Below the pieces are notes generated by a model. That model ran no database searches. It was not told the origin of the DNA and saw nothing but the letters and a program-made list of their open reading frames with translations. Source: Fibrobacter sp. UWR4 (GTDB taxonomy: Bacteria; Fibrobacterota; Fibrobacteria; Fibrobacterales; Fibrobacteraceae). From it: DNA of 64,000 nt. The translations under genes were made by a program, and so were the position numbers. Shown here piece by piece: positions 31,633 through 35,566 of this stretch (positions are counted from its first letter, which is position 1; each line of letters starts with the position of its first letter). Location of the stretch: positions 1 to 64,000 of the forward strand of contig NZ_QGDU01000017.1 of the NCBI RefSeq assembly GCF_003149045.1. The letters are read 5' to 3'.

Positions 31633-32937
31633 ATGAACTTAAGAACTGCTGCTGCCGTTGGTGCCGCAATTGGCGTTTTTGGTGTTGGTTCTGCTTTTGC
31701 AACCTTCGCTCGCGTTGAATCCATGGGCAAGAACACTACTTATATCATGGACGATGTAAGCATCTTCGACAACCCGGCTAATGCAAACCTTTATTCTAAC
31801 TATTTGATTGGCGGTTTCGGTGCTTATACCGATAACAACCTCCAGGCTGGCGGCAACTATGATCCGCAGCACCCCACTTTCGGTGGTATCTTTGCTCTGA
31901 ACTTTGGTGATGAAAACAATCCGGATCCGAAGTTCACCATCGGTGGTCTCTTTGGCCGTATCGATGATGATTTGGCTATGTATCTCCCGGGTCGTGTCCA
32001 GGTAGGTAGCTCCAGATATTCTAAGGTTCCCGAAACCGTGACTAACTTTGACGGCTTCCTGGGCTGGACTCTCTCTAGCGGCGACGCTATGGGCTTGCAT
32101 ATCTATATCGCTCACCAGGATGGTGGCGATCTGGACGAAAGCGGTTCCTATCAGCCGGATGAAGATGCTCATGCTTCTATCGTCAAGGCTGATGGTGGTA
32201 TTAACATCCAGACTGGCAGCGGTACTTCCTACGAAGCATCCTTCGGTCTTGCTCGTATCCAATATGGCCCGGGTCACTATGACTTCTTTGAAAATGGTGA
32301 CTTCTCCTTCTTGGCAAAGGCTCGCGCATTCTTCACCCTCGAAGCAATCGACGGTGAACTTGTTCCGGCAGTTTCCATGAAGCTCGCTCAGGCTCCCGGC
32401 ATTGATGACAAGAACGCTCAGGCTGGTCTCGGTATCAATGTTGCCATGAACCGTGGCTTCTTCTGGATGGGTCTTGACTTCGTCTGGCGTCAGCTGAAGG
32501 CTCATGACTACTTCTATGACACTAACCTTGGTAGCTGGATCTACGATGGTCGCGACGAAGATGGTGATCACAACTGGGACAAGCGTTCCGACATCGGTGG
32601 CAAGATCAGCTTCGGTATCGAACGTAACATTTGGTGGGATTGGTTCGTAATCCGTGTTGGTGGTCAGAAGTCCATCATGTACACCGAATGCTCCAAGAAC
32701 GAAAAGAACATCTACAACCGCGAACGCTATGGCATCTGCAAGGATGACGGCACTTTCTTCTCCACCAACCCGCTGGCTGATGGTACTAGCAAGGACCACG
32801 TTGGCTTCGGCTTCGGCATCAACATCGAAGAAAAGCTGAAGATTGACGTGACCGTCGCTGAAGATGTGCTGTTCCGTAACCCGTTCCAGGGTGAAGGCCG
32901 CCTCTTCTCTCGCGTAGACGCTACCTATAGCTTCTAA
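31633..32937 (+). CDS. Outer-membrane beta-barrel protein
   Basis: A 434-residue exported protein: signal peptide to about residue 23 (GSAFA), then repeated Gly/aromatic amphipathic strands and a C-terminal Phe (RVDATYSF) typical of BAM-assembled barrels. I do not recognise a family. It follows the TonB-like operon after a terminator and has AGAGGAG before its ATG. The position suggests it is the outer-membrane client or anchor of the motor; this is inference. A DEDGDHNWD loop resembles a calcium site. Confidence 0.78.
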   Translation: MNLRTAAAVGAAIGVFGVGSAFATFARVESMGKNTTYIMDDVSIFDNPANANLYSNYLIGGFGAYTDNNLQAGGNYDPQHPTFGGIFALNFGDENNPDPKFTIGGLFGRIDDDLAMYLPGRVQVGSSRYSKVPETVTNFDGFLGWTLSSGDAMGLHIYIAHQDGGDLDESGSYQPDEDAHASIVKADGGINIQTGSGTSYEASFGLARIQYGPGHYDFFENGDFSFLAKARAFFTLEAIDGELVPAVSMKLAQAPGIDDKNAQAGLGINVAMNRGFFWMGLDFVWRQLKAHDYFYDTNLGSWIYDGRDEDGDHNWDKRSDIGGKISFGIERNIWWDWFVIRVGGQKSIMYTECSKNEKNIYNRERYGICKDDGTFFSTNPLADGTSKDHVGFGFGINIEEKLKIDVTVAEDVLFRNPFQGEGRLFSRVDATYSF

Positions 32938-32997
32938 TATAGTTGCAAAGGAAGGGGTGTACCCCTTCCTCTGGACTCCTTTCCCCACGTGGGGTTT

Positions 32998-33023
32998 AGA
33001 CCTGCTTTACCGCAGGTCTTTTT
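32998..33023 (+). terminator. Terminator of array unit 1
   Basis: AGACCTGC (32998-33005) pairs perfectly with GCAGGTCT (33012-33019), followed by TTTT. It is also the likely terminator of the upstream OMP gene. Confidence 0.8.
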
Positions 33024-33139
33024 GTTATGTTGCAAAGGGCTGGTTTTCCCCTTCCTCCACATAGAGGACAATTCTCACTAAGGCAACGAAGTTGCCAAGT
33101 GTTCATTAGTCTGGACTCCCACCCAACATTCGGGTGAAT

Positions 33140-33167
33140 GGACCTGCCTAACGGCGGTCCTTTTTTT
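33140..33167 (+). terminator. Terminator of array unit 2
   Basis: GGACC (33140-33144) pairs with GGTCC (33156-33160), with an inner GCC/GGC, followed by seven T residues. Confidence 0.75.
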
Positions 33168-33256
33168 GTTAAGGTGCAAAGGGCGGGACTTCCACCTATC
33201 ACTGGGGTGAAAGGGACTTGCTTGTTGGTGGTCCTTTTTTTCTATTTTATTGGGTG

Positions 33257-33628
33257 ATGATGAAAAATTTAAAGTTTGTTTTGCTTGCCTTTACGGCTTT
33301 GTTTGTGGGGTGTTCTGAACCTACGGATCGTATTGAACACAAGCTGACTCCGTACCTGCAGGAGGATTTGAAATTCATGGTGGCGGAGAATATCCGTGCC
33401 AATGGAAACAAGGATGCCTTGATGGAAGAGCCGTATTATCGCGTGAAAGATTTTCGTTTGTTCGAAGGGGCTGCATCCCGTATTTATGCGGCTTACGCAG
33501 AGGTCGACTTTTTCATCTATAAGGATGTGGCGATGCATGAGAAGAGAAAGTATCGCTATGACGTGCACACTCGTCAGTGGGATCGTTATTCCAAGGAACT
33601 AAAACATGGTAAGGATTCTATTCCTTAG
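33257..33628 (+). CDS. Small lipoprotein of unknown function
   Basis: A 123-residue predicted lipoprotein (signal peptide with lipobox FVGC, Cys at about residue 18) with a charged alpha/beta body and no family I recognise. Two ATG codons in tandem (33257, 33260) can start it. No Shine-Dalgarno site is seen; GGGTG lies just upstream. It lies between the structured array and mreB and has no evident partner. Confidence 0.65.
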   Translation: MMKNLKFVLLAFTALFVGCSEPTDRIEHKLTPYLQEDLKFMVAENIRANGNKDALMEEPYYRVKDFRLFEGAASRIYAAYAEVDFFIYKDVAMHEKRKYRYDVHTRQWDRYSKELKHGKDSIP

Positions 33629-33698: not shown

Positions 33699-34721
33699 TT
33701 GTTCGGTCTTTTCTCTTGCGACATTGGTATTGATCTCGGTACGGCAAACACTTTGGTCCACGTTGCCGGCCAGGGCATTGTAATCAACGAACCTACGGTT
33801 ATTGCTGTGGACAGCAAGAACAACCGTGTTTCTGCCATCGGTTTCGAAGCGAAGAAGATGCTTGGCCGTACTCCGGGCGAAAGCCGCGCTGTGCGTCCCA
33901 TGCGTGATGGCGTGATTGCTGATTTTGAACTGGTAGAAAACCTTCTCCAGACTTTCATCAAGCGCGTGCAGAAGTACCCGCTTTGGATGGTAAAGCCCCG
34001 CGTTGTTGTGGGTGTTCCTTCCGGTATTACCGAAGTGGAAAAGCGTGCTGTGATCGATGCTGCTAAGCAGGCTGGCGCTAAGGAAGTGCACCTGGTCCAC
34101 GAACCGATGGCTGCCGCTATTGGTATGGGCATTCCTGTTGAAGACCCTGTTGGTAACATGATCGTTGATATTGGCGGTGGTACTTCCGATATTGCTGTGA
34201 TCGCACTGAATGGTACCGTATGTAACGCTTCTGTACGTGTCGGTGGTGACGAAATGGACGAAGCTATTGTCCGTTACCTCCGCACCATGTATAACCTCTG
34301 CGTTGGTGAAAGCACTGCAGAACAGATCAAGATGACTATCGGCTCTGCTAGCCCGCTGGACGAAGAATTGACCATGGAAGTGAAGGGTCATGACTTTATC
34401 GCTGGTATGCCTCGCACCATGACTATCAATAGCGCTGAAATCCGTGAAGCTCTGAATGAACCTGTCACCGCAATCGTTGAAGCTGTGAAGCAGGCTTTGA
34501 GCATTACTCCGCCGGAACTCTCTGCTGATATTTACGACAAGGGCATCATTATGACTGGTGGTGGTTCTCAGCTTCGTGGCTTTGATGAACGTATCCGTCA
34601 GGAAACTGGCCTTTCCGTGAATGTGATTGACGAAGCCCTGATTTGCGTATGTAAGGGTGCCGCTCGCATTCTGGAAGACTTGGACAAGTATCGTCCTGTC
34701 CTTATTGCATCCTCTAACTAA
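33699..34721 (+). CDS. mreB: Rod shape-determining protein MreB
   Basis: A 340-residue actin-like ATPase that organises lateral wall synthesis under the inner membrane. The N-terminal DIGIDLGTANTLV phosphate-1 motif, VVGVPSGITEVEKRAV and DIGGGTSDIAVI phosphate-2 motif are conserved. The start is a TTG at 33699, supported by the standard MFGLFS opening and by AAAAGGG eight bases upstream; no ATG fits. It is first of the mreBCD-mrdA-rodA operon. Confidence 0.96.
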   Translation: MFGLFSCDIGIDLGTANTLVHVAGQGIVINEPTVIAVDSKNNRVSAIGFEAKKMLGRTPGESRAVRPMRDGVIADFELVENLLQTFIKRVQKYPLWMVKPRVVVGVPSGITEVEKRAVIDAAKQAGAKEVHLVHEPMAAAIGMGIPVEDPVGNMIVDIGGGTSDIAVIALNGTVCNASVRVGGDEMDEAIVRYLRTMYNLCVGESTAEQIKMTIGSASPLDEELTMEVKGHDFIAGMPRTMTINSAEIREALNEPVTAIVEAVKQALSITPPELSADIYDKGIIMTGGGSQLRGFDERIRQETGLSVNVIDEALICVCKGAARILEDLDKYRPVLIASSN

Positions 34722-34738
34722 AACTACGATACATTTCG

Positions 34739-35566
34739 ATGTTTAGGGCTTTTCGCTTTATTATCGATTTGTTCTCCCAAAGGCATGGCATTGTTGCTTT
34801 TGCCTTTTTCTTGGCTCTTGGTTTCCTGATGCGTCAGGCTCCCAATGTGGTCAGAGAGAGCATCGTCACGACCGTTACCAGTACCGTGTTCTATCCGGCC
34901 CAGCTGGTTTCAAGTTCCTTGAATGAGTTCCGCTCTATGGCGGAAGAAAACACTCACTTGAAGGAAGAGAACGCCAGACTCCGTCAGGAAACTTATCACG
35001 CGCATGAAGGCTTGCAGGAATTGGCTAGACTGCATACCCTAGTCCGCTTTGACGACAAATGGGATTTCCCCATCGTGACTGCCCGAGTGGTGGGACACAA
35101 TCCCGGCCGTTTTCTTACCACGCTGGTGATTAATCGCGGTAGCATGCATGGCGTCAAGGAACATATGCCTGTGTTCTCCATGAATGGTCTGGTGGGTAAA
35201 GTGACTAGAGCCGAAATGGGACATTCCCGCGTGCAGTTGCTGGTGGACCCGAACCTTAAGTTGTCTGTAATGGAGCGTCGCACTCGCGTGGTGGGCTTCC
35301 TTGAATCCATGGATGGTCATACCTTGACTGCCATGGTGCCGACTCATGCTGGTGTGAAACAGGGCGACACATTGGTAACTTCCGGTCTTGGCGGTATTTT
35401 TCCGAAGGGTATTCCTGTTGGAACGGTAAAGGATGTGCGTAAGTCTAATTTGGATGTCATGCGCCAGATGGACGTGGAACCCTTCCAGGAATTTTCCGTG
35501 CTGGAAGAAGTATTCGTGATGGAAAAGGAACCAGATTGGATTATTCAGGAGTTGCTAAATGAATAA
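34739..35566 (+). CDS. mreC: Rod shape-determining protein MreC
   Basis: A 275-residue bitopic protein: transmembrane helix (about 18-36), a coiled coil (about 65-95, EENTHLKEENARLRQE) and the periplasmic beta domain with VINRGSMHGV and PVFSMNGLVGKV. It links MreB to the elongation synthases. It starts 18 bases after mreB. TACGAT lies eight bases before the ATG, so an internal start of transcription is possible. Confidence 0.93.
   Translation: MFRAFRFIIDLFSQRHGIVAFAFFLALGFLMRQAPNVVRESIVTTVTSTVFYPAQLVSSSLNEFRSMAEENTHLKEENARLRQETYHAHEGLQELARLHTLVRFDDKWDFPIVTARVVGHNPGRFLTTLVINRGSMHGVKEHMPVFSMNGLVGKVTRAEMGHSRVQLLVDPNLKLSVMERRTRVVGFLESMDGHTLTAMVPTHAGVKQGDTLVTSGLGGIFPKGIPVGTVKDVRKSNLDVMRQMDVEPFQEFSVLEEVFVMEKEPDWIIQELLNE

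What the first reader, a model, noticed from the sequence alone, without database searches (positions are those of the whole stretch)
32942..33240. Three tandem related structured units, each ending in a terminator
Between an OMP gene and a lipoprotein gene, three imperfect copies each start with TGCAAAGG, carry a GGACTCC-like box and end in a GACC/GGTC stem with a T-run. One terminator would suffice for the upstream gene. Triplication with conserved internal motifs suggests tandem small RNAs, or an attenuator-like array processed from the OMP transcript.
Basis: seen in the sequence. Interest (0 to 1): 0.66.

Follow-up and report, generated by a model that had tools for sequence, protein, structure and literature searches.

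The report
REP-like hairpin and terminator tandem array
Behind an outer-membrane-type gene of a Fibrobacter, a short repeat hairpin and the gene's transcription terminator have been copied three times in tandem, and one copy holds a second small two-hairpin repeat found in all 80 Fibrobacter genomes searched; this looks like repeat DNA rather than a set of new small RNAs.

Summary
The three units are real: TGCAAAGG starts at 32944, 33031 and 33175, and pairwise similarity beats all 500 shuffles for every pair. Each unit is (i) a REP-like hairpin "A" (GATGCAAAGGG..CCCTCTGGACTCC), degenerate in unit 3, plus (ii) an intrinsic terminator. Of 40 orthologous OMP 3' ends, most carry one plain terminator; only the window genome and five relatives carry A or a remnant. 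A second locus (ferredoxin) shows the same [A+terminator] cassette in 1, 2 or 4 tandem copies. A occurs in 20/80 Fibrobacter genomes (19 copies here), has compensatory stem changes, and 21/55 copies start at a sense stop codon (3.6% at control positions). Unit 2 also holds a 54-nt two-hairpin element "B" (33056-33109), present in 80/80 Fibrobacter genomes (2-50 copies), nested at the same place in A at several loci, and in about 44% of 108 sites inside GATCC..GGATGAC (CGTC-like) palindromes in one orientation. B has no detectable strand bias towards genes. Best reading: REP-like repeat DNA and duplicated terminators ending the ExbBD/TonB-OMP transcript before mreB. Small RNAs or attenuators are not supported. 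A new REP family with a nested repeat: a new variant of a known kind.

The parts
31633..32937 (+). OMP-type gene (no Pfam family), last gene after ExbB-ExbD-ExbD-like-TonB-like genes; TAA stop at 32935-32937
   Evidence: orthologue in 78 of 80 Fibrobacter genomes
32944..32979 (+). Unit 1: REP-like hairpin A; the model match starts 4 nt after the OMP stop codon
   Evidence: R2 match 32942-32986, 63.1 bits; 9-bp stem; stop adjacency
32983..32994 (+). Unit 1: second short hairpin CCCCACGTGGGG
32998..33024 (+). Unit 1: intrinsic terminator T1
   Evidence: (8-bp stem + T-run)
33031..33119 (+). Unit 2: copy of A (TGCAAAGGG ... CTGGACTCC) split by the nested element B
   Evidence: R2 match 33029-33126 with a 73-nt stretch inside
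33056..33109 (+). Element B nested in unit 2: first hairpin (33054-33067) and second hairpin CACTAAGGCAAC-GAA-GTTGCCAAGTG (33076-33101)
   Evidence: R1 match 33054-33111, 73.5 bits; 80/80 Fibrobacter genomes
33120..33136 (+). Unit 2: second short hairpin CACCC..GGGTG
33140..33167 (+). Unit 2: intrinsic terminator T2
33175..33205 (+). Unit 3: degenerate remnant of A (TGCAAAGGGCGGGACTTCCACC)
   Evidence: alignment to unit 2, z 7.9; no R2 match
33214..33241 (+). Unit 3: intrinsic terminator T3
   Evidence: fold only; not listed by the scan
33260..33628 (+). Small lipoprotein-like gene, followed by mreB (33699-34721) and mreC (34739-35566)

Best explanation
The region is the 3' end of the ExbB-ExbD-TonB-OMP transcript. 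An ancestral single intrinsic terminator (shown: conserved position in 40 orthologues) was joined in one Fibrobacter lineage by a REP-like repeat hairpin (A) placed directly after the OMP stop codon (shown). The resulting [A + terminator] cassette was duplicated in tandem (shown by sequence; also at the ferredoxin locus), giving three terminators in a row. A second dispersed repeat, the two-hairpin element B, came to lie inside the second copy of A (shown: A without B at the same locus in G037, G032 and in G040's first unit; the order of events is inferred). Inferred mode of action: in RNA, the stop-adjacent hairpin slows 3'-5' decay of the OMP message and the three hairpin/T-run signals stop RNA polymerase before the lipoprotein-mreBC operon; A and B themselves are repeat DNA kept as palindromes, spread by a transposase or repair process not identified here. 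No stand-alone small RNA is made in this reading.
For: Three terminators fold well. Of 40 orthologous OMP 3' ends most have one plain terminator; A or a remnant only in G040, G029, G037, G032, G030. Same cassette at the ferredoxin locus: four tandem copies in G040, two (each with B inside) in G037, one with B in G000, one in G024, plain terminator in G029 and most others. A: 20/80 genomes, 19 copies in G000, 16 in G040; stem covariation; seven G000 loci matched to G040 A loci; other tandem arrays of A, e.g. seven copies with a 71-bp period at G000 C32. 21/55 A copies abut a sense stop codon versus 115/3179 control positions, Fisher p 7e-16. Wobble pairs 6 of 723 stem cells in A. B: 80/80 genomes, mostly intergenic, no detectable strand bias, enriched between convergent and depleted between divergent genes.
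Against: Stop-codon adjacency in sense orientation also fits an RNA function selected for, not only a REP insertion habit. No transposase was tied to A or B: eight IS200-type Y1 transposase loci have no B copy nearby, and G040 and G029 carry A and B but no Y1 gene over the cut-off. Low wobble content could also reflect recent spread. No expression data. The genome is a draft in 93 contigs, although the three units differ enough that a mis-assembled repeat is unlikely.
Confidence: 0.72

Rival explanations
1. Tandem small RNAs processed from, or transcribed independently after, the OMP gene.
For: Structured units with T-runs and conserved internal motifs; relatives elsewhere with covariation.
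Against: No suitable promoter, array missing in most of 40 orthologues, B without detectable strand bias, few wobble pairs, no Rfam family. Processed 3'-UTR RNAs cannot be excluded from sequence.
Confidence: 0.08
2. A is a selected 3'-UTR RNA element (message stabiliser or stop-codon-proximal translation modulator) and not just an inserted repeat; tandem copies tune termination of strongly expressed genes.
For: 21/55 copies abut a sense stop codon, none of the antisense ones abuts a long gene; cassettes kept at orthologous sites between G000 and G040 with stems that differ but still pair.
Against: Patchy in the genus (20/80), tandem arrays away from stop codons, wobble pairs not tolerated more than other mismatches. 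Known REPs also sit close behind stop codons (PMC3733652).
Confidence: 0.17
3. B is a class of very small mobile element that inserts into the hairpins of other repeats; A+B is then a product of two independent invasions. (Concerns B only; compatible with the best explanation for the array.)
For: B lies in the same place of A at several loci with at least two B subtypes (window, L015, L142, L166, L269/L340, L338), inside CGTC-like palindromes in a fixed orientation (48/108 with both borders; right border motif 55 versus 4 on the wrong side), and in a few loci inside a hairpin of its own kind (L183, L190, L211).
Against: Fixed place and orientation also fit an old composite repeat whose short form has lost B; no target duplication and no transposase were found; flank complementarity is only modestly above shuffles.
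Confidence: 0.3

Closest known systems
REP elements (repetitive extragenic palindromes), GTAG and CGTC superfamilies (PMC3733652)
   Same: Short palindromic hairpins, many copies per genome, intergenic, close behind stop codons, between convergent or same-direction genes, tandem groups; CGTC REPs lack a dedicated transposase.
   Different: A carries neither a GTAG nor a CGTC tag at its borders, and Fibrobacter is not mentioned in that paper; here A is joined with a terminator and the pair is duplicated as one cassette.
REPs nested in larger palindromes (A. variabilis GTAG-15, H. neapolitanus CGTC-1 dimers, PMC3733652)
   Same: One palindromic repeat regularly found inside another palindrome.
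   Different: B is a two-hairpin element and is found inside at least two different repeat families and, in a few loci, inside its own hairpin.
REPs as insertion targets of IS elements (PMC1525189, title and abstract only)
   Same: Repeat palindromes are sites for a second element.
   Different: B is only about 55 nt and codes for nothing; no transposase was linked to it.
Tandem intrinsic terminators (such as rrnB T1-T2; own knowledge)
   Same: More than one hairpin/T-run behind a gene.
   Different: Here the copies are homologous and were duplicated together with a repeat hairpin as one cassette.

Membership tests
REP elements in the broad sense (element A) | Short palindrome forming a stable hairpin, with stem variation that keeps pairing | tested here: met
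   six of 12 pairs change on both sides, 0/500 shuffles reach the covariation score
REP elements in the broad sense (element A) | Many dispersed, mostly intergenic copies in a genome | tested here: met
   19 copies in G000, 16 in G040; contexts
GTAG REP superfamily | Unpaired GTAG tag at one end | tested here: not met
   borders of A are GATG/GACG/GTTG and GGACTCC
CGTC REP superfamily | Unpaired CGTC tag at one end of A | tested here: not met
   however 48/108 B copies lie inside GATCC..GGATGAC palindromes that resemble CGTC REPs
GTAG REP superfamily / REPIN-RAYT | Y1 transposase gene flanked by the repeat | tested here: inconclusive
   no B copy in eight Y1_Tnp loci; G040 and G029 have A and B but no Y1 gene over cut-off; A was not searched around Y1 genes, and diverged transposases could be missed
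Intrinsic terminator | GC-rich hairpin followed directly by a T-run | tested here: met
   for T1 and T2; T3 by fold only
Small RNA gene | Own promoter and discrete transcript | tested here: inconclusive
   no suitably placed promoter-like site; transcripts not testable here
Described RNA family (Rfam 15) | Score above gathering threshold | tested here: not met

The most novel reading that the evidence does not exclude
Element B is a previously undescribed class of minimal mobile DNA (about 55 nt, two hairpins, conserved AN/N internal bulge) that has reached every Fibrobacter species examined by inserting in one orientation into hairpins of other repeat families, mobilised in trans by an enzyme not yet known.
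Probability: 0.25. Interest if true: 0.62.

Novelty: new variant of a known kind. Interest (0 to 1): 0.42.

Why it matters
It turns a suspected sRNA array into a concrete case of how a repeat hairpin, a terminator and a second nested repeat combine and duplicate behind genes. It also gives two searchable models for repeats of Fibrobacter, a main cellulose degrader of the rumen, for which I found no description of REPs: one patchy in the genus and often directly behind stop codons, one present in every genome searched. The presence of filled and empty A copies at the same locus makes the mobility of B directly testable.

Tried and rejected
Rfam at gathering and at permissive E-values: nothing credible; a group II intron domain hit on the minus strand (E 0.07, far below its threshold) was rejected as chance. 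Tandem Repeats Finder on the array: no rows. Y1 transposases as movers of B: no association in the loci tested. A test for complementary flanks around B: no difference with arbitrary windows against re-paired flanks, modest excess of stems of 8 bp or more (13% versus 1.8%) against shuffles. Small RNA and attenuator readings: no promoter, lineage-specific. Look-alikes of B in Alphaproteobacteria and a Bacillota MAG (full-length scores 35-51 bits) were found with a pattern that presupposes the core; common descent is not shown. A B match in a contig labelled Bacteroidales (L154, 70.6 bits) scores like Fibrobacter copies and may be a binning error.

Full report
Observation. Between the stop codon of an OMP-type gene (31633-32937) and a lipoprotein-like gene (33260-33628) the window holds three related units that start with TGCAAAGG at 32944, 33031 and 33175. 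Global alignment of units 1 and 2 (insert removed), 2 and 3, and 1 and 3 gives z-scores of 8.6, 7.9 and 5.0, beyond all 500 mononucleotide shuffles in each case. Each unit ends in a hairpin plus T-run (T1 32998-33024, T2 33140-33167, T3 33214-33241; -13.6, -13.5, -11.6 kcal/mol).

Surroundings. The genes upstream are ExbB, ExbD, a second ExbD-like gene and a TonB-like protein; downstream follow the lipoprotein-like gene, mreB and mreC (the second ExbD-like gene was not scanned, the OMP and lipoprotein genes have no Pfam hit and are named by sequence character). The genome is a draft of 3.6 Mb in 93 contigs; that it is a Fibrobacter is inferred from the named organisms that hold the related elements.

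Comparison of the locus. The OMP gene is found in 78 of 80 genomes of the genus. I read its 3' end in 40 of them. By inspection each has at least one hairpin/T-run before the next gene, mostly a single plain one such as GACGCCCCTTTCGATAGGGGCGTTTTTTG. A palindrome of the TGCAAAGG type lies between stop and terminator only in G040, G029, G037, G032 and, as a remnant, G030. G040 (94% identical OMP) also has three terminators, but with a different order of modules; G037, G032 and G029 have one unit. So the array is lineage-specific and structurally unstable, while termination at this place is conserved.

Element A. The palindrome GATGCAAAGGGCGGGG-loop-CCCCGCCCTCTGGACTCC recurs in the genome. A covariance model from 14 copies shows six of 12 pairs with changes on both sides, no shuffle of 500 reaching the covariation score, and a frequent A-C mismatch at the third pair. 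It finds 19 copies in the window genome, 16 in G040 and copies in 20 of 80 genomes. Some form tandem arrays: seven copies with a 71-bp period at C32 of the window genome. Seven loci of the window genome match G040 loci that also carry A, with different but still paired stems. Of 55 copies, 21 start within 8 nt of a sense-strand stop codon that closes an open frame of at least 60 codons, against 115 of 3179 shifted control positions (p 7e-16); the six antisense cases involve frames of under 200 codons. Wobble pairs make up 6 of 723 stem cells and are no commoner than other mismatches outside the A-C column, which leans towards a palindrome kept at DNA level, though recent spread could give the same picture.

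A second locus. The ferredoxin gene has the same architecture (30 genomes read): stop codon, A, GGAC.., terminator. G040 has four tandem [A + terminator] units; G037 two units, each with element B inside A, plus a partial third; the window genome has one unit with B inside A; G024 one; G029 and most others a plain terminator. Duplication of the cassette is therefore a recurring event, not a peculiarity of the OMP gene.

Element B. The insert of unit 2 (33056-33109) is a member of a dispersed family of about 55 nt with two hairpins. On 40 selected sequences the pair that closes the second hairpin is C-G 23, A-U 8, U-A 7, G-C 2 with no break (the apical GGCAAC stem was part of the search pattern, so its constancy is partly by selection). 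A covariance model finds B in 80 of 80 Fibrobacter genomes, 2-50 copies each, and in the phylum otherwise only in two further genera of the same family and one genome of another family. In 82 intergenic sites B lies more often between convergent (28, expected 23%) and less often between divergent genes (10, expected 24%), p 0.018 and 0.010; in same-direction pairs it lies 19 times with and 25 times against the genes (naive gene calling, and 31 further copies overlapped a called frame). It sits at the 3' foot of hairpin A, or between its arms, in the window, L015, L142, L166 and the ferredoxin units of G000 and G037, with at least two B subtypes. In 48 of 108 sites it lies between GATCC-type and GGATGAC-type borders, with the right border motif 55 times on the expected side and 4 times on the other, so the orientation is fixed. 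In a few loci it lies inside a hairpin of its own kind.

What it is and how it works. The best-supported reading is a 3' UTR built from repeat DNA: an ancestral terminator, a REP-like hairpin behind the stop codon, tandem duplication of both, and a second nested repeat. Shown: anatomy, homology, distribution, duplication at two loci, filled and empty A at the OMP locus. Inferred: that all three terminators work, that the stop-adjacent hairpin protects the message, and how A and B spread. Small RNAs are not supported by any test that could be run here, but transcripts could not be examined.

Known relatives. REP elements are short palindromes that often lie next to stop codons and between convergent or same-direction genes, and some lie inside larger palindromes (PMC3733652). 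A fits REPs in the broad sense but lacks the GTAG and CGTC tags, and no Y1 transposase was linked to B in the loci tested. REPs as targets of insertion elements are known (PMC1525189, title and abstract only). Paper searches combining Fibrobacter with REP or palindrome terms gave no description of such repeats (hits judged by title and abstract; subscription journals are not covered).

Noticed in passing
L010 (own genome C32:32951-33351): Seven tandem copies, period 71 bp, of element A with the spacer CTACAGCCTACCTGAAATGATTTCGTTAC.
   Followed up: partly
L004 1500-1640, L011, L018, L311, L313: A third module often follows A: an AGCTAG..CTAGC hairpin with variable inside (AGCTAGCCTGCTGATGAG..CGGCTAGCGAGAGTCAGG), then at times another GGCGGGG..CCCCGCC hairpin; looks like a further nested repeat.
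   Followed up: no
L183, L190, L211: Element B lies inside the apical part of another B-type hairpin (CACTAAGCACTT[..]AAGTGCTAAGTG), a repeat nested in its own kind.
   Followed up: no
L191 5908-5967 (also L036), L124, L218, L226: Some B copies appear to lie inside long open frames (the one in L191 looks like an ABC transporter ATPase), as known for REPs and Rickettsia palindromic elements; naive gene calls only.
   Followed up: no
L163, L174, L186, L207, L168; L137, L150, L213: B-like elements with full-length scores of 35-51 bits in Alphaproteobacteria and a Bacillota MAG (Soudan_17), where some are also present in more than one copy; relationship or convergence open.
   Followed up: partly
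L040, L263: A further hairpin stretch GATGAAGCATTTGTTAGTGCTTTAGCACTTACAAAGACTTGTCC lies next to B in G032 and in the window genome.
   Followed up: no
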